Source: Brevundimonas vesicularis
Lineage (GTDB): Bacteria > Pseudomonadota > Alphaproteobacteria > Caulobacterales > Caulobacteraceae
Assembly (NCBI RefSeq): GCF_014204545.1
Contig: NZ_JACHLJ010000001.1
Span: 806,001 to 870,000 of the forward strand
Reading direction: 5' to 3'
DNA length: 64,000 nt
This document shows positions 23,662-41,062 of the stretch, piece after piece. Each line of letters begins with the position of its first letter. Position 1 is the stretch's first letter. The translations under genes were made by a program, and so were the position numbers. The notes below the pieces were generated by a model. That model saw only the letters and a list, made by a program, of their open reading frames with translations, did no database searches and was not told where the DNA came from.

Positions 23662-23666
23662 ACCCC

Positions 23667-25426: not shown

Positions 25427-25662
25427 ACGCCATCATCCCCTTTCCCGATCGCGCTGGCCACGATCTGCTCAAGGACACGTCGGTCGGCGTCGCCTCCATC
25501 AGCCGCAAGGTTGATCGGATCATCGAGGACCACACACCTCATGCCCAAGCTGCGCGCCTGACGGTCCGGTTCGCCGTTCTGGCGGCCCGTGACCGAATGA
25601 CGAAATCCGAACTGCTGAACGCCCTGCGTGACCTGACCGAAGAAGTCGAGGCCCAGCCATGA
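25423..25662 (+). CDS. Small phage protein
   Basis: 79 aa, helical C-terminus (ARDRMTKSELLNALRDLTEEVEAQP). Coupled by ATGA overlaps to both neighbours. No family recognised. Confidence 0.6.
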   Translation: MNAIIPFPDRAGHDLLKDTSVGVASISRKVDRIIEDHTPHAQAARLTVRFAVLAARDRMTKSELLNALRDLTEEVEAQP

Positions 25663-26642
25663 ACATCCCCATCGACCAAATCACGACTTTTGATCGCGTC
25701 CGTCAGGCTTCCCGACCGCAGGTTGATGCCCTCGTCGCCAGCATTCGTGAAGTTGGCCTGCTGAACCCAATCACCGTGGCGCCGACCGACGGCGGTTTCG
25801 CCCTGGTCGCCGGCATGCACCGTCTGGAGGCCTGCCGCGTCTTGGGGATGACGGCAGTGCCAGCGATCACGCTCGACCTCGACGCCAATCAGCGGATCAT
25901 CGCCGAGTGCGACGAAAATCTGTGCGCGCCGACGTTGACCGCGTCGGAGCGGGCCGAGTTCACCCGCCGGCGGAAGGCGGCCTATGAGGCGCTGCACCCC
26001 GAGACGCGGGCGGATGCACCTAAGGGCAACCAGTATGCTTCTCGCCAAGTTGGCGACAAGCAACCTGCCCCACGGTTCACTGCCGACACTGCCGCCTCGA
26101 CGGGCCAGTCTGAGCGGGCCGTGCAGCGCGATGCCGAGCGAGGCGAGAAGGTCTCCGACGATGCCCTGGGCATGATCAAGGGCACCCGTCTCGACACCGG
26201 CAAGTACCTCGACAGCATCAAGAACCTCGCGCCCGAGGATCAGGTCGCTAAGGTCGAGGCCGACCTCGCGCCCTCAGAGCCTGACGAAAAACGGGACACT
26301 GCTCCACAAGCAGCGGTCGATCCCGAACGCCGCAAGCTGGCGAAGCTGACGACGGACGCCTTGATCGACGAGGTATTGGGTCTGCGCGCCGACCTTGCTG
26401 ACGAAAAGACGAAGACCCTCAGTTTGAAGAACGAGCGTGAAGACCTTTCCGCCAGGCTGGCCGAGGCCACCTCCGGCGAACAGGGAAAGGTGATAGGCAA
26501 CCTCCAGCGCCAGCTGCATCAGCTCAAGGGACGCATCGCAGAGCATCAGACTGCAGCCAAGCGATGGGAGCGAAAGGCCGTGAAGGCTGAGGCGCGCGTC
26601 AAGGAACTGGAGAACCTGCCGATCGACATGGGTGCGCTGTGA
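25659..26642 (+). CDS. ParB/Srx-domain protein with coiled coil
   Basis: 327 aa. Residues 1-95 form a ParB-like nuclease/CTPase domain: QITTFDRVRQASRPQVDALVASIREVGLLNPITV, then GFALVAGMHRLEACRVLG and the IIAECDENL helix. The central region is variable, and residues about 235-320 are a long coiled coil. It has no ParA partner, so partition is unlikely. Phage ParB-like proteins are often transcription or modification factors. Placed in the replication operon. Confidence 0.8.
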   Translation: MNIPIDQITTFDRVRQASRPQVDALVASIREVGLLNPITVAPTDGGFALVAGMHRLEACRVLGMTAVPAITLDLDANQRIIAECDENLCAPTLTASERAEFTRRRKAAYEALHPETRADAPKGNQYASRQVGDKQPAPRFTADTAASTGQSERAVQRDAERGEKVSDDALGMIKGTRLDTGKYLDSIKNLAPEDQVAKVEADLAPSEPDEKRDTAPQAAVDPERRKLAKLTTDALIDEVLGLRADLADEKTKTLSLKNEREDLSARLAEATSGEQGKVIGNLQRQLHQLKGRIAEHQTAAKRWERKAVKAEARVKELENLPIDMGAL

Positions 26643-26890
26643 GCATCCTCGCCCGCATCCAAGCCCATGGCGGTCAGGTCGTCCGCGCCGAATGGAGGTT
26701 CACGCTCAAGCCCGGCCGTCTGTCGCCTGCCGCCCTCGCATGGCTGAAGGCGCACTGGCGCGCGGCGTGCGCTGAGGCATGGCCAGCGCTGGACCATTGG
26801 GAAGAGCGCGCGGCTATCCGCGAATACATGGGCGGGCAGTCTCGCGCCGAGGCTGAGGCCAGCGCCTATGCGGAGGTCGCCGGATGCTGA
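26639..26890 (+). CDS. Small phage protein
   Basis: 83 aa, GTG start at the ParB-like stop. Trp-rich helical protein (ALAWLKAHWRAACAEAWPALDHWEE). Its end overlaps the helicase start by 7 nt. No family recognised. Confidence 0.6.
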   Translation: MSILARIQAHGGQVVRAEWRFTLKPGRLSPAALAWLKAHWRAACAEAWPALDHWEERAAIREYMGGQSRAEAEASAYAEVAGC

Positions 26891-28455
26891 CCTTCCGAGA
26901 CCCAAAGGACATCGTTCTGCGCCCCTACCAGGATGCAGCGGTCGAAGGATTGCGCGACGGTCTTCGTGAGGGCCGCAAGCGTCTAATCCTGTGCGCCCCG
27001 ACCGGTGCGGGCAAGACAGTCTTGGCGGCCCACCTTCTGAAGCAAGCTGATGAGAAGGGCAGCTACGCCTTGTTCCTCGTGGACCGCGTGGCCCTAGTGA
27101 ACCAGACGAGCGAGACGCTCGACGAATATGGCGTCAACCACGGCATCGTGCAGGGCATCAACCGCCGCTGGGCTCCCCGCGAGAACGTGCAGGTCTGCTC
27201 GGTCCAGACGCTGGCTCGCCGGTCTCTGCCCCGGCGTCCGTCGCTGATCGTCTACGACGAAGCGCACTGCCAATACGCGGCGACCCTGAAGTTCATCGCC
27301 GACCATCCTGACGCCGTGGCCATCGGCCTGACCGCCACGCCATTCACCGCCGGCATGGCGGACCATTGGGAGGGTATGGTCAACGTCACGACGACGCGGA
27401 CGCTGATTGACGACGGCTTCCTGATGGAGCCGAAGGTCTATATCGCCAGATCGCCGGATGAGAGCGAGTATGGTCGTAACAGCTTCGGCGAGTTCTCGGA
27501 TGAGAGCGCAGCTTCGGCCGGCATCAAGATCGTCGGCGATGTGGTGGCCGAGTGGATCGCCAAGACAAACGAGCATTTTGGCGGCCCAGCCAAGACCATC
27601 GTTTTCAGCCCGACCGTCGAACATGGGCGCGAGCTATGCGCTGCCTTCGCAGCGGCTGGGTTTAACTTCCAGCAGATCAGCTACCAGGACCGCGACGACA
27701 ACGAGCGCGCCGAAAAGATCGCTGAGTTCCGCCGCCCTGACAGCCTCATTCATGGGCTGGTCTCTTGCGGCGTGCTGACCAAGGGCTTTGACGTGCCAGA
27801 CGTCCTGGTCGGGATCTCGTGCAAGCCTTACCGAAAGAGCCTGTCGAGCCACATCCAAGAGATAGGCCGCGTCATGCGGACCCATCCTTCGAAGACTAAG
27901 GCCCTCTGGCTCGATCATTGCGGCAACTTCGAACGCTTCGCCGTCGACATGTATGACGTCTGGGACAACGGCGCGGGTGAGCTGTCGTCAGCGACGAAGC
28001 GCGACAGCATCGCCCGTGAGCGCGAAGTTAAAAACCGCGAGCCGGTCAAGTGCGTCGAGTGCGGCGGAGGGATGCGAGGCAATACCTGCACAGCATGCGG
28101 GTGGGAGCGTCCGGCGCGCTCTGACATCCAGTCGGTCGCAGGTGAGTTGCGCGAGTTCGATCCGGCTGCCTTCGGCATGCAGGCGCGCGGCGGTCTGAGG
28201 GCGGACTGTTTGAAGCGGCCGAAGGACATCTGGCGTGCCGCTCTCAACTATTGCGCCGCCCACACCCGCCAGGGCGAAGATCATGCCCGGCGCTGGGCTT
28301 ATGGCGTGTTCCGGGGCGTCTATCCCGGCGCCAAGGTGCCGAGCGGCTGGTATCATGCTCGCATCCCTGCCGTCGTGGACCCGGCAGCATACGGCTTGGT
28401 CGAACGCGAGACGGCTCGCTTCCGCAAGAAGTCGCCAATGAAGAGGGCAGCATGA
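26884..28455 (+). CDS. Superfamily II DEAD/DEAH-box helicase with zinc ribbon
   Basis: 523 aa. Q-motif-like LRPYQ, Walker A APTGAGKT at 38-45, Walker B DEAH at 125-128, motif III TATP, motif VI QEIGRVMR. Residues 390-405 hold a four-Cys zinc ribbon (C390, C393, C402, C405). The C-terminal domain (DIWRAALNYCAAHTRQGEDHARRWAYGVFRGVYPG) is typical of phage replicative helicases of this class. Expected to unwind phage DNA at the origin, with the adjacent primase. Confidence 0.92.
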   Translation: MLTFRDPKDIVLRPYQDAAVEGLRDGLREGRKRLILCAPTGAGKTVLAAHLLKQADEKGSYALFLVDRVALVNQTSETLDEYGVNHGIVQGINRRWAPRENVQVCSVQTLARRSLPRRPSLIVYDEAHCQYAATLKFIADHPDAVAIGLTATPFTAGMADHWEGMVNVTTTRTLIDDGFLMEPKVYIARSPDESEYGRNSFGEFSDESAASAGIKIVGDVVAEWIAKTNEHFGGPAKTIVFSPTVEHGRELCAAFAAAGFNFQQISYQDRDDNERAEKIAEFRRPDSLIHGLVSCGVLTKGFDVPDVLVGISCKPYRKSLSSHIQEIGRVMRTHPSKTKALWLDHCGNFERFAVDMYDVWDNGAGELSSATKRDSIAREREVKNREPVKCVECGGGMRGNTCTACGWERPARSDIQSVAGELREFDPAAFGMQARGGLRADCLKRPKDIWRAALNYCAAHTRQGEDHARRWAYGVFRGVYPGAKVPSGWYHARIPAVVDPAAYGLVERETARFRKKSPMKRAA

Positions 28456-29384
28456 ACGCCCTTTCGCTGGATGAAGCCATGCGCCGGGCATGTGATGCCG
28501 TGAGGGTGTCGCCGCCCAAACGCCGATGCGCGCCCGGTCGATGGACCCGAACCGATTCCCTCGGGAAGAACGGAAAGAACGACGCGGCGGTGTTGATCGA
28601 TGACGATCAGCAAGGCGGCTTCGTCTACAACTACCAGACGGCCCAAGGGCAGAAGTTCCGCGTCGATGGCGCGAACGATAACCGCCCGGCGGACCCGATG
28701 ATCGAGATTCGCCGGCGGCAGCGGGACGCTGAACGTGAGACCGAGCGTCGAGACGTGGAGCGCATCTGTGCGGACTTGGTGCATGGGTGCAGGACGGACG
28801 TTCACCCCTACCTGAAGGCCAAAGGCTTCCCGGATGAGCTGGGGCTGGTCTGCGACGACCCTCGCCAGTTCTTCCCGTCCGGCCGGTTCGGCGACATGCT
28901 GGCCCACGCCTTGCCCGAGGGCCAGGGCCCGTTCCTGATCATCCCCGGCCGCGTCGGCAAGGCAATCACGACGGTTCAGTTCATCACGCCCGACGGCGCC
29001 AAGAAGAACATCCTTCGAGGCGTCATGTCTGGTGCCGCCCATCGGATCGCCACGGGGCGCGACACATGGGTTTGTGAGGGCATCGGAACCGCCATGACCA
29101 TCAGGGCCGCCCTGCGCCTACTGGGGGCCTCGGCGACTGTCCTTTCGGCCTTCTCGGCATCCAATGTCGGTCAGGTGGCAGAATCCATCGCAGGATCGCG
29201 CATCGCAGCTGACCACGACAAGCCCGTCGAGACGCTAGACTGGAAGGGCGCGGGAGAGTTCTACGCCCGCCGCTCAGGTCGCCAGTGGACGATGCCCAAG
29301 CAGATGGGCGACGACTTCAACGACCTTCACCAGCGGGAGGGCCTTCGGGCCGTGGCGCTGCACCTTAGGGAGGCGCTGGGATGA
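28452..29384 (+). CDS. Phage primase with Toprim domain
   Basis: 310 aa from ATG 28452 (ATGA overlap with the helicase). The N-terminal 170 residues hold a zinc-free primase-associated region, then the Toprim fold: TWVCEGIGTAMTIRAALRLLGASATVLSAFSASNV with the catalytic Glu, and the IAADHDKP acidic motif. Similar to the P4/DUF7146 class of phage primases. It makes primers for the helicase upstream. Confidence 0.85.
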   Translation: MNALSLDEAMRRACDAVRVSPPKRRCAPGRWTRTDSLGKNGKNDAAVLIDDDQQGGFVYNYQTAQGQKFRVDGANDNRPADPMIEIRRRQRDAERETERRDVERICADLVHGCRTDVHPYLKAKGFPDELGLVCDDPRQFFPSGRFGDMLAHALPEGQGPFLIIPGRVGKAITTVQFITPDGAKKNILRGVMSGAAHRIATGRDTWVCEGIGTAMTIRAALRLLGASATVLSAFSASNVGQVAESIAGSRIAADHDKPVETLDWKGAGEFYARRSGRQWTMPKQMGDDFNDLHQREGLRAVALHLREALG

Positions 29385-29791
29385 TGAAGAGACCCCGCGC
29401 TCTTGAGGAACGCGGGGCCGGCCTGGCGGACGGTTTGAAGACAGTGGCGCCAGAGACCGGAAGCCTACCACGGGGCGGAACCCCAGGCGAAGCGCAGTCC
29501 GAAAGAGTGAAGCGCGGTTCCCGGCACGATGACCAAGGTGTCGCAAGTAGCACTCGACGATCCGGCGATAGTCACTCGACCAGATCGGCCAAGACGACGG
29601 CTCGGCTCCGGCCAGCAAGATCGTGGAGGCATGGGGACCAACCTGGGAGGCCGCGAGGCCCCTGGGCTGGTCGTCCTATGCCTTCGCTCAGGCTCTCTCC
29701 TACCAGCAATACAAATCTGACCGAGGAAATTCAGACAGTGACCCGCGCCGATTTTTCCGCCAACCGCCACCACCAGGGAGCCGCAGCATAA
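29381..29791 (+). pseudogene. Doubtful 136-codon frame, possibly a frameshifted gene
   Basis: The frame starts in an ATGA overlap with the primase and ends in TAATG with the next gene, so both borders look coupled. But its product is Arg/Ser/Pro-rich and unlike a folded protein. From 29572 to about 29707 another frame reads QIGQDDGSAPASKI, then EAWGPTWEAARPLGWSSYAF, with the GC-rich third positions of coding DNA. Two frameshifts would join the pieces. It could be a decayed gene, or noncoding. An inverted repeat CCCCGCG/CGCGGGG sits at about 29394-29418. Confidence 0.35.
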
Positions 29792-30558
29792 TGGCCAAGC
29801 GCAACTCTATCCCGCTGACCTTTGCGGAACAGCAAGAGCGAACTCGCGCCGCCAACGAGGCGCGGGCGATCAAACGCGCCCAGAAAGAGGCCGAGGCCCA
29901 GGGCGTCGCCCAAAAAGAGCAGCCCGAAACCAACGCTCTTCTGCGAGAGCGGCGAGCCGAAGTCGCGCGGTTGAAGGCCCAAGGCGCCGACGTGAACGTG
30001 GACAAGAACACGAATGAGGTCCTTGGAGCTTGGCGCCGGGACGTTTTTACGATCCTGCGCAACCGTCACGGAAAGCCGACCAACGGCTATCCCAAGGGCC
30101 GGCCCGCCCTTTCACAGCGCGCTTATGAGGCGTTTCGGGGCCACGAGACGGACATTCACCTGTCGGAGGGGGCGTCAGGTGGCGAACGCCGGCCCGACTT
30201 CATCCGCGCGACGTGCGAAGGCGCGCCGGGCCAGAACGTCACCCAGGAAGCGATAGACGCGGCCGGCCGGGTAAAGAAGACGCTGCTGGGCCTGTCGCCG
30301 ACTGACGCTCGCCTGCTGACCGCCCTGATGACCGGAGAGAAGGCGCTGGCGCGAAACTGGCGCCAGACCGTGGAGGCGGAGACGGGAGAGACGGCTGACG
30401 AAAGCCAGGCGGCCCGGATCCGGGCCTTAGGTGAAAATCTGATCCACGCGCGCGGCGTCGCGACTGCCAAGGCCATCATCCCCGCCAACGACCGACCTGC
30501 CCTCGAGCCTCATCAGCAGAAGGTGACATGGTTCAGGGGCGCTGATTTCGGAAGATAA
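29791..30558 (+). CDS. Phage protein upstream of the packaging genes
   Basis: 255 aa from ATG 29791, with AGGGAG upstream; a GTG at 29623 would add 56 residues but lacks a ribosome site. Basic helical N-terminus (AEQQERTRAANEARAIKRAQKEAEAQ), then a conserved core with GAWRRDVFTILRNRHGKP and a helical end GLSPTDARLLTALMTGEKALARNW. Function not recognised. Last gene before the late-region terminator. Confidence 0.7.
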   Translation: MAKRNSIPLTFAEQQERTRAANEARAIKRAQKEAEAQGVAQKEQPETNALLRERRAEVARLKAQGADVNVDKNTNEVLGAWRRDVFTILRNRHGKPTNGYPKGRPALSQRAYEAFRGHETDIHLSEGASGGERRPDFIRATCEGAPGQNVTQEAIDAAGRVKKTLLGLSPTDARLLTALMTGEKALARNWRQTVEAETGETADESQAARIRALGENLIHARGVATAKAIIPANDRPALEPHQQKVTWFRGADFGR

Positions 30559-30627
30559 CTCAGGGCTTTTCCGACCGGTCGAAGCAGGGTACACAAAGGC
30601 AAGGTCGCTTCGCGCGTCCAGAAGATC

Positions 30628-30657
30628 AGCCCCGCCTCTTTTGAGCGCGGGGCTTTT
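30628..30657 (+). terminator. Rho-independent terminator of the rightward early operon
   Basis: Stem AGCCCCGC (30628-30635) with GCGGGGCT (30647-30654), followed by TTTT. It divides replication genes from packaging genes. Confidence 0.85.
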
Positions 30658-30686
30658 CGTTGCGCGTCAGATTTGACCAAGCGGCC

Positions 30687-30953
30687 TCAGCGCTGATCCA
30701 TCGTGATCGGTGTCCACACGAGCTGAGCGCCGTCGACCGTAGTGTACGACCCCATTGGATTGCCGATTATCGCGCCTGTGTTCGGCACGGCAGCAAAGCT
30801 TTTACCGGTGACGGTGTCGAGCAACACCATGTCTCGCAGGTTACCCTGGTTGTAGATCATCCACCTGCCGACGTTTGATTGTTCGACGGGCTCTGGCTGC
30901 GGATTGCAGGCACCCAAAATCAGTAGAGCCGAAGCTACAAGAAACCTCTTCAT
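30687..30953 (-). CDS. Antisense small lipoprotein
   Basis: 88 aa on the minus strand inside the rightward genes. Signal peptide with lipobox ILGAC (Cys16), then a compact beta-rich domain (VGRWMIYNQGNLRDMVLLDTVTGKSF) resembling small phage lipoproteins that copy host outer-membrane proteins. Opposite orientation between a terminator and the terminase suggests independent expression, perhaps in the lysogen. Confidence 0.75.
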   Translation of the reverse strand: MKRFLVASALLILGACNPQPEPVEQSNVGRWMIYNQGNLRDMVLLDTVTGKSFAAVPNTGAIIGNPMGSYTTVDGAQLVWTPITMDQR

Positions 30954-31026
30954 CGATCCCCCCTATAAAAAACAACCTGCGGGATATTTCGATTCCCCGA
31001 TTGAAAACAATCAAAGGAAATCAAAC

Positions 31027-31302
31027 ATGGCCCGAGGCGGTGCGCGCCCCGGCGCTGGGCGTAAGAAAGGCGCGATCACGACCAAGACGCGTGAGATCGC
31101 AGAAGCGGCTCTAGGCTCAGGTCTGACGCCTCTCGACTATATGCTCGGCATCCTTCGGGACGACCAGAAGCCGGAAGCCATGCGCTTCGAGGCAGCTAAG
31201 GCGGCGGCGCCATTCGTCCATGCTAGGCTGGCGGCCGTCGACGCCAACGTGAACCACGGCGGCATCAGCATCAACATCTCGCCGGACGACGCCGAGCTGT
31301 AG
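31027..31302 (+). CDS. Terminase small subunit-like protein
   Basis: 91 aa from ATG 31027 (AAAGGAAA upstream). Begins ARGGARPGAGRKKGAITTKT, a basic DNA-binding tail, then a short helical domain with LDYMLGILRD and AAAPFVHARLAAVD. This family lies directly before terL in many alphaproteobacterial phages. The AT-rich 73-bp gap upstream, with TATAAAA near 30963, may hold promoters for both this gene and the divergent lipoprotein gene. Confidence 0.75.
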   Translation: MARGGARPGAGRKKGAITTKTREIAEAALGSGLTPLDYMLGILRDDQKPEAMRFEAAKAAAPFVHARLAAVDANVNHGGISINISPDDAEL

Positions 31303-31303
31303 G

Positions 31304-32599
31304 GTGGCCTTTTCCCTGACGCCTAAGCAGCGAGAGGCGAACAGGCTTCTCGCCAGCGCGGCGACAAACATCATGCTTCGGGGCGGATCCCGATCGGGCA
31401 AGACGTTTCTGATCATTCGCGCCATGTGCGTCAGGGCGATGAAGGCGTCGAACTCGAAGCACGCCGTGTTCCGCTTTCGGTTCAATCACGCGAAGGCCTC
31501 TATCTGGCGAGACACCCTGCCGAAGGTCATGCGGCTATGTTTTCCGGGCGTGCCGCTGGAGCTGAACGAAACCGACCTGGTCGCCACCTTCCCAAACGGT
31601 TCGCAGTTGATCCTTGGCGGACTGGACGACAAGGCGAGGGTCGAGAAGATCCTCGGCGGCGAGTACTCGACCATCTACTTCAACGAGAGCAGCCAGATAC
31701 CCTGGTCCTCGATCGAAGTGGCGATGTCGCGCCTAGCTGAGAACAGCGGCCTCGCCCTCAAGGCCTATTACGACTGCAACCCGCCATCGAAGCTGCACTG
31801 GTCGTTCCAACTCTTCCGGCTGAAACTGAAGCCCGGCACCAAGGAGGCGGTCTCCGATCCCGACGACTATGTCGAGATGCTGGTCAACCCGTCAGACAAC
31901 CGAGCCAACCTGCCATCGAAGTATTTCGACATCCTGGGCGGAATGTCGGCCGCCAAGCGCCAGCGTTTCGAAAAGGGCGAATGGGCGTCCGAGGTCAACG
32001 GTGCCCTCTGGTCGCTTGACGATCGCGAGGCGCCCGATGGCCGGGTAATCCCCGGCATCGACAGCACGCGGATCGCGACGCCAGCCTTGCCCCAGATGGT
32101 GCGGGTCGTGATCGCAGTTGATCCATCCGGCACCAAAGGCGACGGCGGCGGGGACGACATCGGCATCGTTGCCGCCGGCAAGGGCATCGACGGCCGGGCC
32201 TACGTCCTGGCTGACAGAACCTGCCAACTGTCCCCCGATGGATGGGGGCGAATGGCCGTTCAGGCCTATCACGACTTCCAGGCCGACCGGGTCATCGGGG
32301 AGTCGAACTTCGGCGGCGACATGGTCCGCTTCGTCGTCCAGACGGCCGACAAGCGCGTCCCCTACGCTGAGGTCAAGGCCAGCCGGGGCAAGACCGTTCG
32401 GGCTGAGCCTGTGTCCGCCCTCTACGAACAGGGCCTAGTGTCGCACGTCGGCGACTTCCCGGATCTGGAGGACCAGATGGTCAACTTCACCCAAGCCGGA
32501 TTTGTCGGCGAGGGCTCACCAGACCGCGCCGACGCACTGGTCTGGGCCCTGACTGAGCTGATGCTTAGCGGCACGAACTACAGCCTGGCCAACGTCTGA
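31304..32599 (+). CDS. terL: Terminase large subunit
   Basis: 431 aa, GTG start 2 nt after the small-subunit stop. Packaging motor: Walker A GGSRSGKT at 27-34, Walker B region TIYFNESSQI, and RNase H-like nuclease with VDPSGTKGDGGGDDIG and a terminal DRADALVWAL. Cuts and pumps phage DNA into the prohead through the portal encoded next. Confidence 0.95.
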   Translation: MAFSLTPKQREANRLLASAATNIMLRGGSRSGKTFLIIRAMCVRAMKASNSKHAVFRFRFNHAKASIWRDTLPKVMRLCFPGVPLELNETDLVATFPNGSQLILGGLDDKARVEKILGGEYSTIYFNESSQIPWSSIEVAMSRLAENSGLALKAYYDCNPPSKLHWSFQLFRLKLKPGTKEAVSDPDDYVEMLVNPSDNRANLPSKYFDILGGMSAAKRQRFEKGEWASEVNGALWSLDDREAPDGRVIPGIDSTRIATPALPQMVRVVIAVDPSGTKGDGGGDDIGIVAAGKGIDGRAYVLADRTCQLSPDGWGRMAVQAYHDFQADRVIGESNFGGDMVRFVVQTADKRVPYAEVKASRGKTVRAEPVSALYEQGLVSHVGDFPDLEDQMVNFTQAGFVGEGSPDRADALVWALTELMLSGTNYSLANV

Positions 32600-34446
32600 T
32601 GCGCCTGTTCGCCGCCGACCGCCTCGTCAACCTCGTCACCGCCATGGGGACGCAGAAGGACAAGGCTTCGGCTGCGGCCTACTCGATGGCCTATCTCAGT
32701 CCCGAGCAGGCAAACACCGCCTATCGAACCGACTGGATATGCCGCAAGGCCGTGGACATCCCGGCCTTCGACATGATCCGCGAAGGCCGGAACTGGCAGG
32801 CCGAGGCCACCGCAATCGAGAAGCTGGAAGCCGAAGAGGCCCGGCTACAAGTCTGGCCCAAGCTGGCCCGCGTGCTGAAAATGGCCCGCCTGCATGGTGG
32901 CGCCGCGCTAATCCTGGGAACCGGGGAGACGACCCTCGGTCAACCGCTTCGCCTCGACAGCGTCGGCGCCGGCGGGCTGAAGTTCATCCACGTCGCCAGC
33001 AAGTACGAGATCAGCGCAGGCCTGATCGATAAAGACCCCGCCTCCCCCGGTTGGGGCGAGCCGATCAAGTACACGATGAGCGGGAACGGCGGCCGGCAGG
33101 TCGATCTGCACCCCTCGCGCGTCATCCGTTTCGTCGGCGCCGAACTGCCCGACCTCGCCACCGGGAGCGACGGTTGGGGCGACAGCATCCTTCAGGCCCT
33201 GGACGAGGCGATCAAGAACGCGGGCCTCGCCGCTGCCGGCATCGCCCAGCTGCTCCAAGAGGCCAAGGTCGACGTCTTCAAGCTGCCGAACTTCATGGCG
33301 AACGTCGGCGACGAATCCTACCGCCAGAAGGTGCTGGACCGCATCAGCCTGGCCAACACCGCCAAGTCGATCAGCAACGGCTTGGTGATGGATGCCGAGG
33401 AAGACTACCAGCAGAAGCAGGTCAGCTTCTCGCAGCTGCCCGAGGTGCTGCAGCTATATCTTCAGATCGCCGCCGGCGCCGCAGACATCCCCGCAACCCG
33501 CCTGCTGGGTCAGTCGCCATCGGGCATGAACAGCACCGGCGAGAGCGACCTCCGCAACTACTATGACCGGCTCGCCGCCGAGCAGCAGGTCTATCTTCGC
33601 CCCCGGCTGGAACGCCTCGACGAACTGCTGATCCGCTCGGCCTTGGGCTCACGTCCCCCGGAGGTCCACTTCACCTTCGCCCCCCTGTGGCAGATCAGCG
33701 AAAAAGAGAAGGCGGACATTTTCAAGACCACGGCCGACGCAGCGCGCACCATCGCGGGCAATGGCGGCACGTCCGAACCGCTGATGCCGCTTGAGGCTCT
33801 GTCCGACGCCCTGGTCAATCGTCTGGTCGAGGACGGTCACTTGCCCGGCCTTGAGGCCGCCATGGACGAATACGGGCGTCTCAGCGAGCAGGACGATGAC
33901 ACTGGTGCTGACGAAGAAGCGCTGGCTCTGGTCACCCCCCAGATTGCGCCTCCCGTCGTCGCTGTAGACGCCGCGCCCCGCAGCCTCTACGTCCAGCGCA
34001 AGCTGTTGAACGCCGCCGAGTTCATTGCCTGGGCCAAGGCGCAGGGCTTCGAGACAACGACCCCTGCCGACGATCTGCACGTCACGATCGCCTTCAGCCG
34101 TGTCGCGGTGGACTGGATGAAGGCGGGTCAGCCCTGGAGCAACGACAAGAACGGACACCTGCTTGTTGAACCCGGCGGCGCCCGTCTGGTCGAGAAGCTG
34201 GGCGACAAGGGCGCGGTCGTGCTGCTCTTCAACTCATCCGAACTGGCTTGGCGCCACGAAGCGATCCGCCGCGACGCCGGCGCATCGTGGGACTATCCCG
34301 AGTACCAGCCGCACGTGACGATCACCTATGCCGGCGGCACCATCGATCTGACGAAGGTCGAGCCTTATCGCGGCAAGCTGCTCTTCGGCCCGGAAATCTT
34401 CCAGGAGCTGGACGAAGACTGGTCCTCGCGGCTCACCGAAGCCTGA
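32599..34446 (+). CDS. Portal protein fused to Acb1-like 2H phosphoesterase
   Basis: 615 aa, overlapping terL as TGATG. Residues about 10-430 are a DUF1073-type portal (YRTDWICRKAVDIPAFDMIREGRNW, then LARVLKMARLHGGAALILG, and LLGQSPSGMNSTGESDLRNYYD). Residues about 465-610 are a 2H phosphoesterase with two HxT motifs, H494-V-T496 (DDLHVTIAFS) and H572-V-T574 (YQPHVTITY). This is the active-site signature of Acb1, the phage enzyme that cleaves CBASS cyclic nucleotides. A linker rich in Asp/Glu separates the domains. Anti-CBASS activity is inferred from family and motifs. Confidence 0.88.
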   Translation: MRLFAADRLVNLVTAMGTQKDKASAAAYSMAYLSPEQANTAYRTDWICRKAVDIPAFDMIREGRNWQAEATAIEKLEAEEARLQVWPKLARVLKMARLHGGAALILGTGETTLGQPLRLDSVGAGGLKFIHVASKYEISAGLIDKDPASPGWGEPIKYTMSGNGGRQVDLHPSRVIRFVGAELPDLATGSDGWGDSILQALDEAIKNAGLAAAGIAQLLQEAKVDVFKLPNFMANVGDESYRQKVLDRISLANTAKSISNGLVMDAEEDYQQKQVSFSQLPEVLQLYLQIAAGAADIPATRLLGQSPSGMNSTGESDLRNYYDRLAAEQQVYLRPRLERLDELLIRSALGSRPPEVHFTFAPLWQISEKEKADIFKTTADAARTIAGNGGTSEPLMPLEALSDALVNRLVEDGHLPGLEAAMDEYGRLSEQDDDTGADEEALALVTPQIAPPVVAVDAAPRSLYVQRKLLNAAEFIAWAKAQGFETTTPADDLHVTIAFSRVAVDWMKAGQPWSNDKNGHLLVEPGGARLVEKLGDKGAVVLLFNSSELAWRHEAIRRDAGASWDYPEYQPHVTITYAGGTIDLTKVEPYRGKLLFGPEIFQELDEDWSSRLTEA

Positions 34447-34461
34447 TCCCAGGAGACCGCT

Positions 34462-35571
34462 ATGCAGTTCACGGACGCCGCGCCGATCGCAGGGGTGCGC
34501 CTGACGCGTGACGGCTACGCCGTCGCCGAAGTTCGCGCCGCGCGCACCGGCATTCAGCAATACGCCGGTTCCGAAGTCGGCCGGCCCGACCTCGCCGTGG
34601 TCAATGTCTACCGCCCGCCCGAGAGCGTTTTCGCCAACGACAGCATGGCGAGCTACGGCTTCAAGCCGGTCACCATCAACCATCCGGCGGAGGGCGTGAC
34701 CGCCGATAGCTGGAAGGCCCTGGCTGTGGGCGTCGTCGGCGGCGATGTCGTCCGAGACGGCGGGTTCGTGAAGGTGCCGCTGGCCCTGATGGATTCCGCC
34801 GCAATCAAGGCCGTGCAGGACGGCACGCGCGAAATCTCGATGGGCTACGTCTGCGATCTCGCTTTCGAGGACGGGGTGACGCCGGAGGGCGAGCCCTATC
34901 AGGCGATCCAGAAGGACATCCGCATCAATCACCTCGCGCTCGTGCCGAAGGGCCGCGCGGGTCCGCAATGCCGTCTCGGGGATCAGGGCGCCCCTAAGAC
35001 AGCTCCGACCAAAGCGCCCCTCAACCATGGAGACCGTCTCATGACGCTCAAGACCATCACCGTGGACGGCCTCCCGGTCGAGACCACGGACGCCGGCGCC
35101 ATCGCCATCGACCTGCTGCGGGGCAAGCTGTCCCAGGCCGCCGATGCGATGTCCGCCGCCAAGACCACCCACGACGCCGCCCTCGCCGCCAAGGATGCCG
35201 AAATGGCAGCCAAGGACGCCCAGATCGCGGACCTGAAGACCAAGGTGCTGGACGGCGCCGCCCTCGACGCTCTGGTCGCTGAGCGCTCGACCATCGTGGC
35301 GAAGGCCAAGGCGCTGGACGCCAAGGTCGTGACCGACGGCAAGTCGAACGCCGAGATCAAGCGGGCCGTTCTGGGCGACGCCGCCAAGGACAAATCCGAC
35401 GCCTACGTCGATGCCGCCTTCGACCTGAAGACGGCCGACATCAAGACGCCGGACCCCCTGCGCGAGGTCATCACCGACGGCGTCAACGTCGCCGACGCGC
35501 TGGCCCAGCGCGACGCCGCCAAGGAGGCGCGACTGAACCGCCTCAACGGCATCATCGAAGCCGCGGCTTAA
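34462..35571 (+). CDS. DUF2213 prohead protein: protease plus scaffold
   Basis: 369 aa, ribosome site AGGAGA. Residues 1-180 form a DUF2213 domain (NVYRPPESVFANDSMASYGFKPVTINHPAEGV, GTREISMGYVCD, HLALVPKGRAGP), a predicted prohead maturation protease fold. Residues about 194-369 are a helical scaffold-like segment with a coiled coil of repeated AAKDAEMAAKDAQIADLKTK. A second start inside the gene (35041) would give the scaffold alone. Confidence 0.8.
   Translation: MQFTDAAPIAGVRLTRDGYAVAEVRAARTGIQQYAGSEVGRPDLAVVNVYRPPESVFANDSMASYGFKPVTINHPAEGVTADSWKALAVGVVGGDVVRDGGFVKVPLALMDSAAIKAVQDGTREISMGYVCDLAFEDGVTPEGEPYQAIQKDIRINHLALVPKGRAGPQCRLGDQGAPKTAPTKAPLNHGDRLMTLKTITVDGLPVETTDAGAIAIDLLRGKLSQAADAMSAAKTTHDAALAAKDAEMAAKDAQIADLKTKVLDGAALDALVAERSTIVAKAKALDAKVVTDGKSNAEIKRAVLGDAAKDKSDAYVDAAFDLKTADIKTPDPLREVITDGVNVADALAQRDAAKEARLNRLNGIIEAAA
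35041..35571 (+). CDS. Nested scaffold protein, internal start
   Basis: 176 aa, same frame as the preceding gene, starting at codon 194. ATG 35041 is preceded by GGAG at 8 nt, and the sequence change from protease to coiled-coil scaffold happens exactly here. Lambda makes Nu3 from within gene C in the same way. Use of this start is inference. Confidence 0.5.
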   Translation: MTLKTITVDGLPVETTDAGAIAIDLLRGKLSQAADAMSAAKTTHDAALAAKDAEMAAKDAQIADLKTKVLDGAALDALVAERSTIVAKAKALDAKVVTDGKSNAEIKRAVLGDAAKDKSDAYVDAAFDLKTADIKTPDPLREVITDGVNVADALAQRDAAKEARLNRLNGIIEAAA

Positions 35572-35583
35572 GGAGCACCTGAC

Positions 35584-36060
35584 ATGGCTGTTGTTCAATC
35601 CACCTACGCCAACGACATCCCGGTCGGCTATCCCGGCATGGTCGCCAATGGCGAAACGTCGAACCGCATCTCGCGCACCTGCGAAGACGCGGGCGGCATC
35701 CCCTTCGGTGCGCCGGTCTGGCGTGGAGCCGGCGACCGTGGCTGCACCGCCACCGTCGGCACCGCCGCCAACTTCCTCGGCTTCGCCATCGCTGACCACG
35801 GCGTCCAGGCGTTGCCGGGCGGCGTCGCGGCCGACGTCTATCCGCGCTACGCCAGCGTCGGGATCATGACGGACGGTGTCATCTGGGTCACCGCCACGGG
35901 CGCCAATGTTGACGGCGCTGCCGTGACGATCGGCACCGGTGCGGGCGCCGCTGACGCCATCGGCGACGTCGCCGCCGACGCCACCCACATCGCCACCGGC
36001 GGCTGGGTCTTCGACGACACCACCACGGCGACGGGCCTCGCCCGCATCGCCAAGCGCTAA
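35584..36060 (+). CDS. Capsid decoration/cement protein
   Basis: 158 aa, Gly/Ala/Thr-rich beta protein. Pattern (NDIPVGYPGMVANGE, then GAPVWRGAGDRGCTATVG) matches DUF2190-type or gp24-type cement proteins that lie just before DUF2184 capsid genes. Twelve bp after the scaffold stop. Confidence 0.7.
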   Translation: MAVVQSTYANDIPVGYPGMVANGETSNRISRTCEDAGGIPFGAPVWRGAGDRGCTATVGTAANFLGFAIADHGVQALPGGVAADVYPRYASVGIMTDGVIWVTATGANVDGAAVTIGTGAGAADAIGDVAADATHIATGGWVFDDTTTATGLARIAKR

Positions 36061-36075
36061 AGGAGCGTCATCACC

Positions 36076-37020
36076 ATGCGTGAGATCAACTTCGCCGACG
36101 CTCAACAGGCGCTCGGCTTCATCACCCCGCAGCTTCTGCGGATCGAGACCCAGGTCTATCAGACCAAGTACCCGAGCTTCGATTATTCCCGCCTGATGAC
36201 CGTCAACACCGACGGCGACATGTGGGACATCGGGTCGGTCTTCTACTCGGGCGACTTCGCCGGTAAGGCCGAGTTTCTGTCCGGCAAGGGCTTCGACATG
36301 CCCTTCGCCGACATCAGCCAGTCGCAGTTCCTGCAACAGAACCACCTTGCCGGCATCGGCTATGAGTGGTCGCTGCAAGAGCTGCAACGGGCCGCCAAGC
36401 TCGGTCGCAACCTGTCGTCCGACAAGGCCATGGCCGCCTCCAAGGTCGCCGAGAGCTTCTGCTACGGCATCGCCATTCGCGGCAATGTCGAGAAGGGCCT
36501 CACCGGTCTGGTCAACGATCCGAACGTCCCGACTGCTACTGTGGCAGCCGACGGCTCCGGTTCGGGCACGGCGTTCACCACCAAGAACCCCGACCTGATC
36601 CTGCGGGACATCAACGCGGCCCTGAACGCGCCGTATAACGCGACCAACGAGACCCAGGTCGCCAATACGCTGCTGCTGCCGACTTCGCGTCTGCAGTACA
36701 TCGCCGGCCTGCGGATCGGTGACGGCGCCGACACCCTGATGAAGTACATCCGGGAGAACAACGCCTACACCCTGGCTACCGGGCAAGAGCTGACCATCAT
36801 CGGCACCCGTGAGCTGGAAACCGCCGGCGCGGGCAACTCGGCCCGGATGATCGCCTACGACAACAGCCGGGACGTGGCCCAATTCCACCTGCCCGGCCCG
36901 CATGAGTTCCTGCCTGCCTTCCAGAAGTCTTCGATGACCTGGGAAGTCGGCGGCATCATGAACGTCGGCGGCGTCGAAATCCGCCTGCCCAAGGGCATTG
37001 CCTATCGGGACGGGATCTGA
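36076..37020 (+). CDS. Major capsid protein (DUF2184 type)
   Basis: 314 aa. HK97-fold family recognised by FADAQQALGFITPQLLRIETQVYQTKYP near the start, ISQSQFLQQNHLAGIGYEWSLQELQRA, and LPTSRLQYIAGLRIGDGADTLMKYIRENN. Strong codon bias toward C/G third positions, as for a highly expressed late gene. Forms the icosahedral shell. Confidence 0.85.
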   Translation: MREINFADAQQALGFITPQLLRIETQVYQTKYPSFDYSRLMTVNTDGDMWDIGSVFYSGDFAGKAEFLSGKGFDMPFADISQSQFLQQNHLAGIGYEWSLQELQRAAKLGRNLSSDKAMAASKVAESFCYGIAIRGNVEKGLTGLVNDPNVPTATVAADGSGSGTAFTTKNPDLILRDINAALNAPYNATNETQVANTLLLPTSRLQYIAGLRIGDGADTLMKYIRENNAYTLATGQELTIIGTRELETAGAGNSARMIAYDNSRDVAQFHLPGPHEFLPAFQKSSMTWEVGGIMNVGGVEIRLPKGIAYRDGI

Positions 37021-37022
37021 TC

Positions 37023-37316
37023 ATGGCCAAGTTCACCAACTACACCCAAGGCCCCAAAGGCCTGAACACCGAGACCGGCCTCGTCTACGTCGAGGCTGGT
37101 CAGACGGTGGACGTCGAAATCAGCAAGGACGAGGCGGCATCCGCCAAGAAGACCGGCTGGTTCTCGGCACCGAAGCATCAGGCCGAGGCGGCTCCCCCGT
37201 CGGAGCCGACCGATGCGGAGATCATCGACGCCCTGAGCGCCGATGACAAAGCCGCCTATGACAAGCTGGACGACGCCGGGAAGGCGAAGTTCCTGGCTGA
37301 CAAGAAGGCCGCCTGA
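37023..37316 (+). CDS. Small head-associated protein
   Basis: 97 aa. N-terminal beta domain (AKFTNYTQGPKGLNTETGLVYVEAGQTVDVEIS) and a charged helical tail. Located between capsid and connector genes. Structural by context only. Confidence 0.6.
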   Translation: MAKFTNYTQGPKGLNTETGLVYVEAGQTVDVEISKDEAASAKKTGWFSAPKHQAEAAPPSEPTDAEIIDALSADDKAAYDKLDDAGKAKFLADKKAA

Positions 37317-37318
37317 TC

Positions 37319-37801
37319 GTGGCGGGCTACGGCAGCGACCAACGCTTCACCGACTGGATGGCCGACAACGGCTATTCCACGTCGGGTGATGGCGTGCTGA
37401 CCGTAGCCCAGCTGCGTCAACGTGGGTCCGCATACATCGACGCCCTCTATGAGCCAAAGTTCCCCGGTCAGCGCACCGGCGGCTTGGAGCAAGAGCGCGC
37501 CTTCCCTCGTACCGGCGCATCGGCCTATGGCCAGACCATCGGCTCCGACGTCATCCCTCTCGCTGTCGAGCACGCCAGCTATCATGCGGCACTCCAAGAG
37601 GACGTGACCCCCGGCAGCCTGTCGGTCGGCGTCACAGCCGCCGGCGCCGTGAAGCGCGAGCGCATCGAGGGCGCGGTCGATATCGAATACTTCGAAGGCT
37701 CTGGCGATGCCGCAGCCGACGCAACAATCCGGCTGAGCGCTGTGGAAGGTTTGCTCGCCCCATTCTTCTCTCGGCCGATGCCGGCGATCTTTGTGGTCTG
37801 A
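37319..37801 (+). CDS. Head-tail connector (DnaT-like family)
   Basis: 160 aa, GTG start. Matches a phage family labelled DnaT-like ssDNA-binding protein, which in practice is the adaptor between portal and tail: DQRFTDWMADNGYSTSG, YIDALYEPKFPGQRTGG, then EHASYHAALQ. Expected at this position after the capsid gene. Confidence 0.75.
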   Translation: MAGYGSDQRFTDWMADNGYSTSGDGVLTVAQLRQRGSAYIDALYEPKFPGQRTGGLEQERAFPRTGASAYGQTIGSDVIPLAVEHASYHAALQEDVTPGSLSVGVTAAGAVKRERIEGAVDIEYFEGSGDAAADATIRLSAVEGLLAPFFSRPMPAIFVV

Positions 37802-38169
37802 TGCCCAAGTTCGACTACAGCCGTCCGCTGGCGACGGCGAACCGGCTGTTTGATCGCTATGGCCAGCGCGGCGCGATCCGACGCACCACCCCCGGCACCC
37901 GCCCATCATACGACCCCGGCCCTTCCACATATTCCGACGACCCGACCGACATGGTCGTCACCGACTTCAGCAGCCGCGAGATCGACGGCACCCGCATTCT
38001 GGCGACCGACAAGAAGATCATGGTCGCGCCCGGCGCGCTGACCGCGCCCCCCGCCCTCTCCGACAAGGTGGTCGAGGCTGACGGAACGGTCTACAACATC
38101 GTTCCGCCGATCCAGACGAAGCGCCCGGCAGGCACGACGCTGGTCTACATCCTCCAGGGCCGCCGATGA
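37801..38169 (+). CDS. Head closure/stopper protein
   Basis: 122 aa, beta-rich; contains DRYGQRGAIRRTTPG and DKVVEADGTVYNIV like other phage stopper proteins. One-nt overlap with its upstream neighbour and 4-nt overlap with the next. Confidence 0.6.
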   Translation: MPKFDYSRPLATANRLFDRYGQRGAIRRTTPGTRPSYDPGPSTYSDDPTDMVVTDFSSREIDGTRILATDKKIMVAPGALTAPPALSDKVVEADGTVYNIVPPIQTKRPAGTTLVYILQGRR

Positions 38170-38372
38170 CCACGAAGAACTCTGTGATGCTGGCCACCGC
38201 CACGCTGCAGGACATCATCAGCAAGGGTAAGGCGATGAGCGCGTGCGCCATGCGCCAGGACGGCGCCGGCCCCCGCGAGGCCCTCCGCAACGACGCCCAC
38301 GCCCTGCTGGACGCCTATCTCGACCACATGGCTGACGCGGGCACCCACGCCCGAGCCATCATCCCGGATTGA
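38166..38372 (+). CDS. Small helical phage protein
   Basis: 68 aa, no family recognised. ATGA overlap with the stopper gene and 3 nt before the head morphogenesis gene. Confidence 0.55.
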   Translation: MTTKNSVMLATATLQDIISKGKAMSACAMRQDGAGPREALRNDAHALLDAYLDHMADAGTHARAIIPD

Positions 38373-38375
38373 TCC

Positions 38376-39416
38376 ATGGCCACCACCCGCGCGAACCGGC
38401 AGGTCTATGCCGACCTGCTGGCTCGCTATGGTGTGGCGGTCGCTGACGCGTTCTTCCGAGCGCTGGACAGCCTTCGGGCCGGGGTTGAGCTGCAACGGGT
38501 CACAGCTGCCCTCCAGAACGGCGACATCGACGCGGCGCTGGAAGCCCTGCACATCGACCCCGAGGTCTTCAACGAAGTCGCCGAGCGCGCCAAGCAAGCC
38601 CACGATGAGGCGGGCAAAGTCACTGCATCGGCCATGCCGAAGCGCGGCGCTGACGGCACCGCCCTGATTGTCCGGTTTGACGGCCGTAACCCTGAAGCCG
38701 AGGCCTGGCTCTCGCGCCGGTCTTCGGATCTGATCACCCGCCTGACGACTGAGCAGCGCCAGCTGGTTCGTGACACCCTCTCCGACAGCATGCGCCGGGG
38801 CGTGAACCCGCGTCAGGCCGCGCTAGATATTGTAGGCCGCATCAGCCGCGTCACTGGCAAGCGTGAGGGCGGTATTCTCGGGCTTTCCGCGCCCCAGGCC
38901 GAATACGTCGCTACCGCGCGCGGTGAACTCGACAGCGATGACCCGGCCGCCCTGAAGCACTATCTGACGCGCATCCGGCGCGACAAGCGCTTTGATCGAT
39001 CGGTCATCAAGGCGATCCGCGAAGGCACACCCGTCGACCCCGCCATCGCCGCCAAGGCTGTCACCGCCTACGAGCGCCGGCTTCTGAAGTTGAGGGGCGA
39101 GACCATCGGCCGGGTCGAGACACTGACCTCGATGCAGCGCGCCAAGTTCGAAGCTTATCGACAGGCCATTGCATCGGGGAAGGTCGCCGAGAACGTCGTC
39201 ACGAAGGTCTGGCGCTCCGCTGGCGACTTGCGGGTCCGCCATACGCACCAAGCGCTGAACGCCGAGAGCGTGCGGTTCAATGAGGCATTCCGCAGCCCGT
39301 CGGGTGCCTTGATGCGCTTCCCGATGGACACCGCGCTCGGGGCCGGCCCGCAAGAGATCGTCGGCTGTCGGTGCGACTGTGAATACCGGATCGACTTCCT
39401 GGCGAACCTGAGGTGA
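38376..39416 (+). CDS. Phage head morphogenesis protein (Mu F / SPP1 gp7-like)
   Basis: 346 aa. The C-terminal 120 residues are a Phage_Mu_F domain: GRVETLTSMQRAKFEAYRQA, VTKVWRSAGDLRVRHTHQALN, and a final GAGPQEIVGCRCDCEYR. In relatives this minor capsid protein is ejected or holds the portal. Unusually it lies after the connector genes rather than next to the portal. Confidence 0.85.
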   Translation: MATTRANRQVYADLLARYGVAVADAFFRALDSLRAGVELQRVTAALQNGDIDAALEALHIDPEVFNEVAERAKQAHDEAGKVTASAMPKRGADGTALIVRFDGRNPEAEAWLSRRSSDLITRLTTEQRQLVRDTLSDSMRRGVNPRQAALDIVGRISRVTGKREGGILGLSAPQAEYVATARGELDSDDPAALKHYLTRIRRDKRFDRSVIKAIREGTPVDPAIAAKAVTAYERRLLKLRGETIGRVETLTSMQRAKFEAYRQAIASGKVAENVVTKVWRSAGDLRVRHTHQALNAESVRFNEAFRSPSGALMRFPMDTALGAGPQEIVGCRCDCEYRIDFLANLR

Positions 39417-39420
39417 TGCA

Positions 39421-40032: not shown

Positions 40033-40035
40033 CCC

Positions 40036-40458: not shown

Positions 40459-40520
40459 GCCCTCCCTGACCGCCCTCACTCGCCGAGATGGGCTCCGGCT
40501 TCAAACCAAAGGAGCCACCC

Positions 40521-40994: not shown

Positions 40995-41019
40995 TTTCGA
41001 CCTCCCCCCCCCAAACTCA

Positions 41020-41049: not shown

Positions 41050-41062
41050 GAAGGACACCCCT

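What the first reader, a model, noticed from the sequence alone, without database searches (positions are those of the whole stretch)
32599..34446. Portal protein fused to an Acb1-like anti-CBASS phosphoesterase
Seen: a DUF1073-type portal is continuous with a C-terminal 2H phosphoesterase domain carrying both HxT motifs (H494-T496 and H572-T574). Known: phage Acb1 uses this pair to cleave cyclic oligonucleotide signals of CBASS immunity. Inference: the phage may carry its immune evasion enzyme on the virion portal, delivering it at the vertex or making it late with the head. How a portal-tethered enzyme would reach cytosolic cyclic nucleotides is an open and interesting question.
Basis: partly seen in the sequence, partly recalled or inferred. 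Interest (0 to 1): 0.75.

Follow-up and report, generated by a model that had tools for sequence, protein, structure and literature searches.

The report
Phage portal carrying an Acb1-like enzyme
A resident phage's DNA-gateway protein carries at its end an enzyme domain built like one that other phages use to destroy bacterial alarm molecules; such fusions are widespread and already described, but here they appear to be exchanged between portals like interchangeable cassettes.

Summary
Confirmed: ORF 32599-34446 (+, 615 aa) is a Phage_portal_3 (DUF1073) portal joined by a predicted disordered linker (435-457) to a 2H phosphoesterase domain that Pfam names Acb1 (E=5e-43). Its predicted fold matches Acb1 with cGAMP (7t27) at Z 16.8, 1.9 A over 135 residues; LigT reaches 10.7.

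It is not unique: a capped collection held 122 distinct fused proteins (window included), and 121 keep H, T, H and T/S. The Pam3 virion portal is a relative; 442 of its 621 residues are modelled, apparently without this domain. Published surveys of 2017 and 2022 already describe portal-2H fusions and propose that they degrade immune nucleotides.

Added here: cassette behaviour. A portal tree needs 13 gains or losses, 12 forced. Of 109 fused pairs with portals 90-99.99% identical, 21, from four groups of loci, carry domains under 70% identical.

Best reading: an accessory cyclic-nucleotide phosphodiesterase for counter-defence, riding on the portal. Whether it acts in the cytosol before assembly or after release from the head is open. 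No activity was or could be shown.

The parts
32599..33900 (+). Portal core, residues 1-434 (Phage_portal_3, DUF1073)
   Evidence: Pfam PF06381 E=6.5e-107; TIGR01555; Pam3 portal 8hds Z 29.4 over 410 residues
33901..33969 (+). Predicted disordered linker, residues 435-457
   Evidence: AlphaFold2 pLDDT under 50 at 435-457
33970..34443 (+). 2H phosphoesterase (Acb1-like) domain, residues 458-615
   Evidence: Pfam PF23474 E=5.2e-43; 7t27 Z 16.8, 1.9 A over 135 residues
34078..34086 (+). First HxT motif, H494-V495-T496
   Evidence: H 121/122, T 122/122 of distinct fused proteins; aligned with T4 Acb1 H44/T46
34312..34320 (+). Second HxT/S motif, H572-V573-T574
   Evidence: H 122/122; T 93, S 29 of 122; aligned with T4 Acb1 H113/T115
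33988..33990 (+). Y464, equivalent of base-stacking Y12 of Acb1
   Evidence: 122/122; role of Y12 from PMC9117128
34402..34422 (+). C-terminal lid region: Q602 (column of T4 E141) to W608 (column of T4 W147)
   Evidence: roles from PMC9117128
31304..32599 (+). Terminase large subunit, overlaps the portal start by one base
   Evidence: Pfam Terminase_6C, Terminase_3, Terminase_6N
34462..35571 (+). DUF2213 head maturation protease with a long C-terminal extension that looks scaffold-like
   Evidence: PF09979; PHROG_530 head maturation protease E=3.2e-99; the scaffold reading is inference
36076..37020 (+). Major capsid protein
   Evidence: PF09950 E=2.7e-76
38376..39416 (+). MuF-like head morphogenesis protein (separate gene)
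   Evidence: PF04233; PHROG_3517
8596..56477 (.). Provirus bounded by 66-nt direct repeats (89% alike); the right-hand copy overlaps tRNA-Val
   Evidence: integrase 8751-9884; a 47,479-base IMG/VR provirus carries the identical portal (L005)

Best explanation
The gene makes a portal subunit with an accessory 2H nuclease on a flexible tether. Shown by sequence or prediction: the portal, the tether (predicted disordered), the 2H/Acb1 fold and the intact, conserved catalytic residues. Inferred: the domain opens small cyclic oligonucleotides (3'-5' linked di- or trinucleotides of CBASS type) by the two-histidine mechanism and so blunts a host alarm. It is made with the head proteins. Each portal chain is free in the cytosol before it joins a dodecamer, so the domain can act there; after assembly it should lie on the inner face of the portal, inside the head. 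A second route, not excluded, is release by the neighbouring head protease and ejection with the DNA. The domain is dispensable to the portal and is exchanged as a cassette, which would let a phage change the signal it can destroy.
For: Fold and family: PF23474 E=5e-43. The predicted domain (pLDDT 91) has two sets of Acb1 structures on top (7t27 Z 16.8, 7t26 15.8, 9q2y 14.1, 9q2g 13.1), then LigT and another phosphoesterase at 10.7; a profile of 81 fused domains finds in the PDB only the Pam3 portal and entries named Acb1 (E up to 10). Activity under selection: 121 of 122 distinct fused domains keep H, T, H, T/S; median dN/dS (NG86) is 0.19 in the domain and 0.09 in the portal core over 190 non-independent pairs. 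Accessory behaviour: 13 changes of fused/unfused on the portal tree of 91 labelled rows, 12 forced by starred branches; 21 of 109 near-identical portal pairs, in four groups of loci, carry domains under 70% alike, the DNA identity falling near codons 450-480 and recovering after the gene; domains 96% alike on portals 43% alike. Tether: 435-457 pLDDT under 50. Inner face: the related E217 portal has a C-terminal barrel projecting into the head (PMC10329688 passages). SMODS cyclases occur in 11 of the 101 genomes searched, 10 above the cut-off.
Against: No enzymatic or infection data. Two of the five T4 Acb1 pocket residues named are not kept in the window protein (E141 to Q602, W74 column to E532), so the substrate may differ. 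48 of 122 fused proteins have no W in the C-terminal stretch counted (one of them, L099, is cut by its contig end). The LigT_PEase model also passes its own cut-off (30.8 bits against 23.3) over a short stretch, 548-579. The host has no SMODS hit, and the Acb1 family was found in only 3 of 101 genomes searched, the own one included. Pfam's name Acb1 is given by similarity and its seed may itself hold portal fusions (not checked). Fused and unfused labels are mildly clustered on the tree (4 of 500 shuffles as low), the tree has doubtful long branches, and the relatives were fetched with patterns that partly select fusions.
Confidence: 0.6

Rival explanations
1. Head-delivered effector (a variant of the best reading, not exclusive of it): the 2H domain is packed inside the head on the portal's inner face, cut off by the head maturation protease encoded next door, and ejected with the DNA, so that signals are destroyed from the start of infection. 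Packaging and injection are proposed in PMC9503650; the protease step is my inference.
For: Portal C-terminus faces the head lumen in the related E217 portal; a DUF2213 head maturation protease is the next gene; the linker is predicted disordered; the Pam3 portal has 621 residues in sequence but 442 in the virion model, aligned 12..432, as expected if the domain is cut off or loose; other enzymes (PBECR, InPase, Nudix) are described on portals (PMC5512222, PMC9503650 passages).
Against: Nothing shows cleavage or ejection; an unmodelled domain may simply be flexible; at most 12 copies per virion would be carried if only the portal ring supplies it.
Confidence: 0.35
2. RNA end repair or another 2',3'-cyclic phosphate chemistry (LigT-like): the domain repairs RNA ends cut by host ribonucleases, or acts as an RNase, rather than on CBASS signals.
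For: 2H enzymes commonly do this, and PMC5512222 names an RNase role as one option for the portal fusions (passages); PHROG_755 that matches the domain is labelled RNA ligase; LigT_PEase passes its own cut-off over 548-579.
Against: Acb1 structures fit better than LigT (Z 16.8 and 1.9 A against 10.7 and 3.6 A); Y464, the stacking tyrosine of Acb1, is in 122/122; PMC5512222 reports never seeing these 2H domains beside RNA ligases.
Confidence: 0.2
3. Structural domain: the 2H fold has become part of the portal or scaffold interaction and its chemistry is vestigial.
For: It is physically part of a structural protein; the Q602 change and one H494R relative (L068) show some drift.
Against: Catalytic residues intact in 121 of 122; close sister portals lack the domain altogether; domains 52-61% alike sit on portals over 96% alike in two groups of loci.
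Confidence: 0.08

Closest known systems
Portal-2H and MuF-2H fusions of the 2017 polyvalent-protein survey (PMC5512222) and the 2022 NAD/ADPr survey (PMC9503650); first author Iyer recalled
   Same: Same architecture class, 2H domain fused to a portal, with the same proposal that it degrades immune nucleotides and (2022) is packed in the head and injected (passages).
   Different: This protein is not named in the passages seen; cassette exchange, counts of gain and loss, and residue conservation were worked out here.
Acb1 of phages T4 and FBB1 (PMC9117128, 2022; first author Hobbs recalled)
   Same: 2H fold, two HxT motifs, Y12 and F107 equivalents aromatic, W147 lid equivalent present.
   Different: Free-standing there (T4 152 aa; FBB1 chain 144 aa); here a C-terminal domain of a portal. 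E141 is Q602, W74 aligns with E532; activity unknown.
Pseudanabaena phage Pam3 portal (PDB 8hds; genome ON014755)
   Same: Portal plus Acb1-like domain in one 621-aa chain, about 40% identical over the whole length.
   Different: Second motif is HxS; 442 residues modelled in the virion structure. The Pam3 structure paper is not held, so what its authors say of the domain is unknown to me; the main text of the Pam3 genome paper (PMC9382816, term counts) does not use the words ligase or phosphoesterase.
Burkholderia phage BCSR5 Acb1 (PDB 9q2y, 9q2g)
   Same: 2H fold with lid, Z 14.1 and 13.1; named Acb1.
   Different: 165-aa chain; only 17-18% identical over the fold; no paper found in the library with BCSR5 and phosphodiesterase.

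Membership tests
Phage_portal_3 / HI1409-type portal | Match above the curated cut-off over the portal domain | tested here: met
   357.8 bits against 33.8; TIGR01555 281 against 196.25
Phage_portal_3 / HI1409-type portal | Place between large terminase and head genes, portal fold | tested here: met
   Terminase at 31304-32599, DUF2213 protease at 34462, capsid at 36076; 8hds Z 29.4 on a predicted model
Acb1 (PF23474) | Profile match above curated cut-off | tested here: met
   146.7 bits against 27
Acb1 (PF23474) | 2H fold as in FBB1 Acb1 | tested here: met
   Predicted model only: 7t27 Z 16.8, 1.9 A, 135 residues
Acb1 (PF23474) | Two HxT/S catalytic motifs | tested here: met
   H494-V-T496 and H572-V-T574; 121 of 122 fused proteins
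Acb1 (PF23474) | Base-stacking and adenine-contact residues Y12, W74, F107, W147, E141 of T4 Acb1 | tested here: inconclusive
   Y464, Y566, W608 agree; W74 column is E532 (W513 nearby is W in 117/121 but its role is untested); E141 column is Q602
Acb1 (PF23474) | Cleaves 3'3'-cGAMP and other cyclic di/trinucleotides; defeats CBASS in cells | not testable with these tools
   No assay possible
LigT / 2',3'-cyclic phosphodiesterase | Profile match above curated cut-off | tested here: met
   LigT_PEase 30.8 bits against 23.3, but only over 548-579 (profile 13-43 of 87)
LigT / 2',3'-cyclic phosphodiesterase | LigT rather than another 2H family is the closest by profile and fold | tested here: not met
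   LigT best Z 10.7, 3.6 A, against Acb1 16.8, 1.9 A; LigT_PEase 30.8 bits against Acb1 146.7
Portal-2H fusions of PMC5512222 and PMC9503650 | 2H domain in one chain with a portal | tested here: met
Portal-2H fusions of PMC5512222 and PMC9503650 | Packaged in the head and injected | not testable with these tools
   A proposal in PMC9503650; only indirect hints here

The most novel reading that the evidence does not exclude
The C-terminus of this portal family is an exchangeable slot for nucleotide-degrading enzymes of different specificity (HxT with a W lid, or HxS without), traded between near-identical portals to match the host's signal, and carried inside the head on the portal to be released by the head protease and ejected with the genome. 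The slot can also take other cargo: sister phage L020 has a PBECR3 nuclease frame there, and the gap before the protease gene may hold defence-like genes.
Probability: 0.2. Interest if true: 0.7.

Novelty: new member of a known kind. Interest (0 to 1): 0.42.

Why it matters
If the domain is active, it would tie a counter-defence enzyme to an essential head protein. The exchanges give natural matched pairs, portals 93-99% identical with different 2H domains, which would let one compare what each domain does on almost the same portal. The Pam3 virion, with a solved portal, is a ready system for asking where such a domain goes in a mature particle.

Tried and rejected
An internal start that would make the domain on its own: in-frame ATG, GTG or TTG codons between residues 395 and 489 are at 396, 415, 422 and 470. 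None sits just before the domain behind a clear ribosome-binding site (codon 422 has a weak GAGG-like stretch); not supported, not excluded.

Host CBASS as direct support: no SMODS hit in the window's genome even at E 10, so the resident host gives none; 11 of the 101 genomes searched have one. SMODS is only one marker of CBASS, and no other was searched.

Defence genes elsewhere: of 10 window ORFs scanned with PADLOC, 5 of them inside the provirus, only one matched, a methyltransferase inside the provirus. The remaining ORFs were not scanned with PADLOC.

Co-inheritance of portal and domain: rejected as a general rule; identities correlate only weakly (Spearman 0.20 over pairs of 129 complete fused ORFs).

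Literature: searches for Acb1 with portal and CBASS, 2H phosphoesterase with portal protein, Acb1 with portal protein and fused, and portal protein with anti-CBASS gave no experimental test of a portal-fused Acb1 in the titles, abstract openings and passages that I looked at; the library lacks most subscription papers. Passages were seen of PMC9117128, PMC9382816, PMC7824862, PMC9503650, PMC5512222, PMC10329688 and PMC11249213; every other paper was seen as a listing only.

One search used 122 distinct of 134 fused ORFs. One search dropped 11 of 173 portal ORFs (5 short, 3 very distant, 2 duplicates, and the window's own copy L005), then went from 162 to 92 rows at 85% identity, one of them (L019, split gene) unlabelled. 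Searches used 129 ORFs complete at both ends. In one search, 11 of the 21 exchanged pairs and 77 of the 88 others could be typed; the rest had a member removed as an identical duplicate. A2 took 85 sequences (window plus 84 of the 86 chosen; L005 and L166 left out). A3 took 81 of the 85 references printed (L067, L023 and L082 left out because the computed domain start was wrong, L032 left out by omission).
Full report
WHAT IS THERE. ORF 32599-34446 on the + strand is 615 aa with no internal stop. Pfam finds Phage_portal_3 (PF06381) at 37-382 with E=6.5e-107 and Acb1 (PF23474) at 462-610 with E=5.2e-43. LigT_PEase matches a short stretch of the same domain (548-579, 30.8 bits, above its cut-off of 23.3) and 2_5_RNA_ligase2 matches below its cut-off. 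A related phage gene (psageB2) is annotated DUF1073. NCBIfam gives TIGR01555 over 8-400 and PHROGs gives portal family 146 over 4-609, that is, both parts together.

WHERE IT LIES. The gene overlaps the end of the large terminase gene by one base and is followed, after 15 bases, by a DUF2213 head maturation protease; a virion structural protein, the major capsid protein, a MuF-like protein, a tail tape measure protein and a tail fibre protein lie downstream. An integrase lies at 8751-9884 on the minus strand. A 66-nt direct repeat, 89% alike, at 8596-8661 and 56412-56477 overlaps a tRNA-Val gene at its right-hand copy, so the window holds an integrated provirus of about 48 kb. An IMG/VR provirus carries the identical portal (L005).

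STRUCTURE. AlphaFold2 with 85 fused sequences gives mean pLDDT 85; residues 435-457 fall below 50, and most of the C-terminal domain lies near 90. The portal part best matches the Pam3 portal 8hds (Z 29.4, 410 residues), and the C-terminal part matches FBB1 Acb1 with cGAMP 7t27 (Z 16.4, rmsd 2.0 A, 135 residues, model 461-612). Predicted alone (pLDDT 91.2, pTM 0.85), the domain ranks 7t27 (Z 16.8, 1.9 A), 7t26 (15.8), and the Burkholderia phage BCSR5 enzyme 9q2y/9q2g (14.1, 13.1; named Acb1 in the PDB) above E. coli LigT and another phosphoesterase (10.7) and the other 2H proteins listed. A sequence profile of 81 fused domains finds in the PDB only the Pam3 portal, FBB1 Acb1 and the BCSR5 Acb1.

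CONSERVATION. Among 134 fused ORFs (122 distinct, the window's included) from the fetched loci, H494 is H in 121 (one R, L068), T496 is T in 122, H572 is H in 122, position 574 is T in 93 and S in 29; 121 of 122 keep the whole set. The equivalents of T4 Acb1 residues, whose roles are taken from passages of PMC9117128, fare as follows: Y12 is Y464 in 122/122; F107 is position 566, with W46 H27 Y25 F22 as the commonest letters; W147 is position 608, W in 74 of the 80 with a residue; E141 is position 602, E in 88 of 121 but Q in the window; the W74 column holds E in 102 of 122. So the chemistry is kept, while the base pocket is partly rebuilt; specificity may differ from T4 Acb1. NG86 dN/dS medians are 0.091 for the portal core and 0.190 for the domain over 190 usable, non-independent pairs, some of which carry exchanged domains; both are well below 1.

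A MOBILE CASSETTE. Near relatives of the window portal lack the domain: L007 (73%), L008 (71%), L009 (69%) and L049 (69%) end shortly after the portal core. On a tree of portal cores (92 rows: 73 fused, 18 unfused, one split gene unlabelled) the fused/unfused label changes at least 13 times, 12 of them forced by starred branches; shuffled labels need 16.7 on average and 4 of 500 shuffles go as low, so the label is only mildly clustered. Sister pairs such as L016 (fused) and L020 (unfused) are clear cases. The tree cannot tell gain from loss, and several long branches in it are doubtful. Of 109 fused pairs with portal cores 90-99.99% identical, 21 have domains under 70% identical, involving 18 loci; from the listed pairs these fall into four groups (L089 against L091/L092; L032/L033 against L034/L035/L096/L149; L110 against L117; L038/L039/L044/L047/L107 against L040/L041), so the independent events may be as few as four. 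The cleanest is L033 against L096: portals 97.4% and domains 58% identical, with DNA identity of 77-96% along the portal to about codon 480, 53-67% across the domain, low in the gap behind it and 88-97% from the protease on, and 83-94% upstream save one window at 60%. In L089/L091 (portal 99.3%, domain 53%) the DNA behind the gene is again 90-100% alike, but the DNA before the portal is only 25-51% alike, and it is similarly unlike (10-62%) in L038/L041; there the portal gene, not the whole phage, is shared. The reverse also occurs: L110 and L122 share 96% of the domain and 43% of the portal. Of 11 exchanged pairs that could be typed, 7, from two of the four groups, exchange an HxT domain with a C-terminal W for an HxS domain without; of 77 typed pairs that were not exchanged, none differs in this way. 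The sample is not neutral: the search patterns partly select fusions, and both fetches were capped, so the fused share says nothing about frequency. Less biased views: which used the window protein alone, 3 of 10 loci were fused, one of them the window's own provirus; in the phage collection 32 of 1084 records with any match cover at least 80% of the protein; in 101 genomes, own included, the Acb1 family occurs in 3.

THE NEIGHBOURHOOD OF THE SLOT. The gap between portal and DUF2213 gene exceeds 150 bases behind 64 of 116 fused and 20 of 36 unfused portal ORFs for which the protease was found; it was not found for 17 and 3 more. Of 9 gap ORFs scanned (plus one stand-alone domain, L003), two are HNH endonucleases (L008, L030), one is a PBECR3 nuclease frame that overlaps the unfused portal's end in another frame (L020), one a SLATT_5 protein (L136), one a putAbiC protein (L085), one a MuF protein (L093), and three have no Pfam match.

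WHERE THE DOMAIN WOULD SIT. In the related E217 portal the C-terminal barrel projects into the head and residues 97-528 of 765 were built (PMC10329688, passages). For Pam3 the deposited portal sequence has 621 residues and the 2H domain maps to 464-619, but the modelled chain has 442 residues and aligns over 12..432. I infer that the domain is not seen in the virion model, either because it is loose or because it has been removed. The Pam3 structure paper is not held, so I could not read what its authors say.

MECHANISM. Most likely the domain is an accessory 2H phosphodiesterase against cyclic oligonucleotide alarm signals (0.6). Head packaging with proteolytic release and ejection is the main variant (0.35 as a route; it is not exclusive of the first). 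RNA chemistry is less likely (0.2) and a purely structural role unlikely (0.08). None of these was tested in the laboratory sense. The window's own host shows no SMODS cyclase; 11 of the 101 genomes searched do, 10 above the cut-off.

WHAT IS KNOWN. PMC5512222 (2017; first author Iyer recalled; passages of section 20) says that 2H domains are fused to MuF or portal domains, that they may be RNases, and that they could also degrade nucleotides of nucleotide-activated counter-invader systems. PMC9503650 (2022; [quoted passage not shown] PMC9117128 (2022; first author Hobbs recalled) does not use the word portal in the main text. The cassette exchange and the counts of gain and loss I did not see in the passages read.

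VERDICT. Observation confirmed; interpretation plausible, partly supported and not new. Interest 0.42, mainly for the natural allele exchanges and the testable question of where the domain goes in the virion.

Noticed in passing
L020 4358-4879 against portal 2983-4428: In a Rhizobium phage whose portal is the sister of a fused one (L016), the place of the 2H domain holds a PBECR3 nuclease frame overlapping the portal's end in another frame.
   Followed up: partly
L019 (Synechococcus phage Yong-M3-232) 158-1618 and 1593-2144: Portal and Acb1-like domain are two overlapping ORFs in different frames, so the domain may be made free there, or the gene is split by a frame change.
   Followed up: partly
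L136 4320-5045 (-), L085 4862-5773 (-): Defence-like genes (SLATT_5; putAbiC) sit on the opposite strand at or behind the portal's end and before the head protease in related proviruses, which suggests an accessory spot inside the head operon.
   Followed up: partly
L008 4421-5029, L030 4846-5451: HNH endonuclease genes lie directly after the portal; they might drive the loss or exchange of the domain.
   Followed up: no
L003 1483-1887 (-): A stand-alone, divergent Acb1-like protein of 134 aa in another genome of the same genus as the host.
   Followed up: no
L068, residue aligned with H494: One metagenomic fused domain has arginine in place of the first catalytic histidine.
   Followed up: no
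window 12080-13903 (-): A 607-aa ORF in the provirus with no Pfam match at E 0.01 and only a marginal match to a PHROG of unknown function.
   Followed up: no
window 15232-15807 (-): Type II DNA methyltransferase-like gene in the provirus (PADLOC MTase_II).
   Followed up: no
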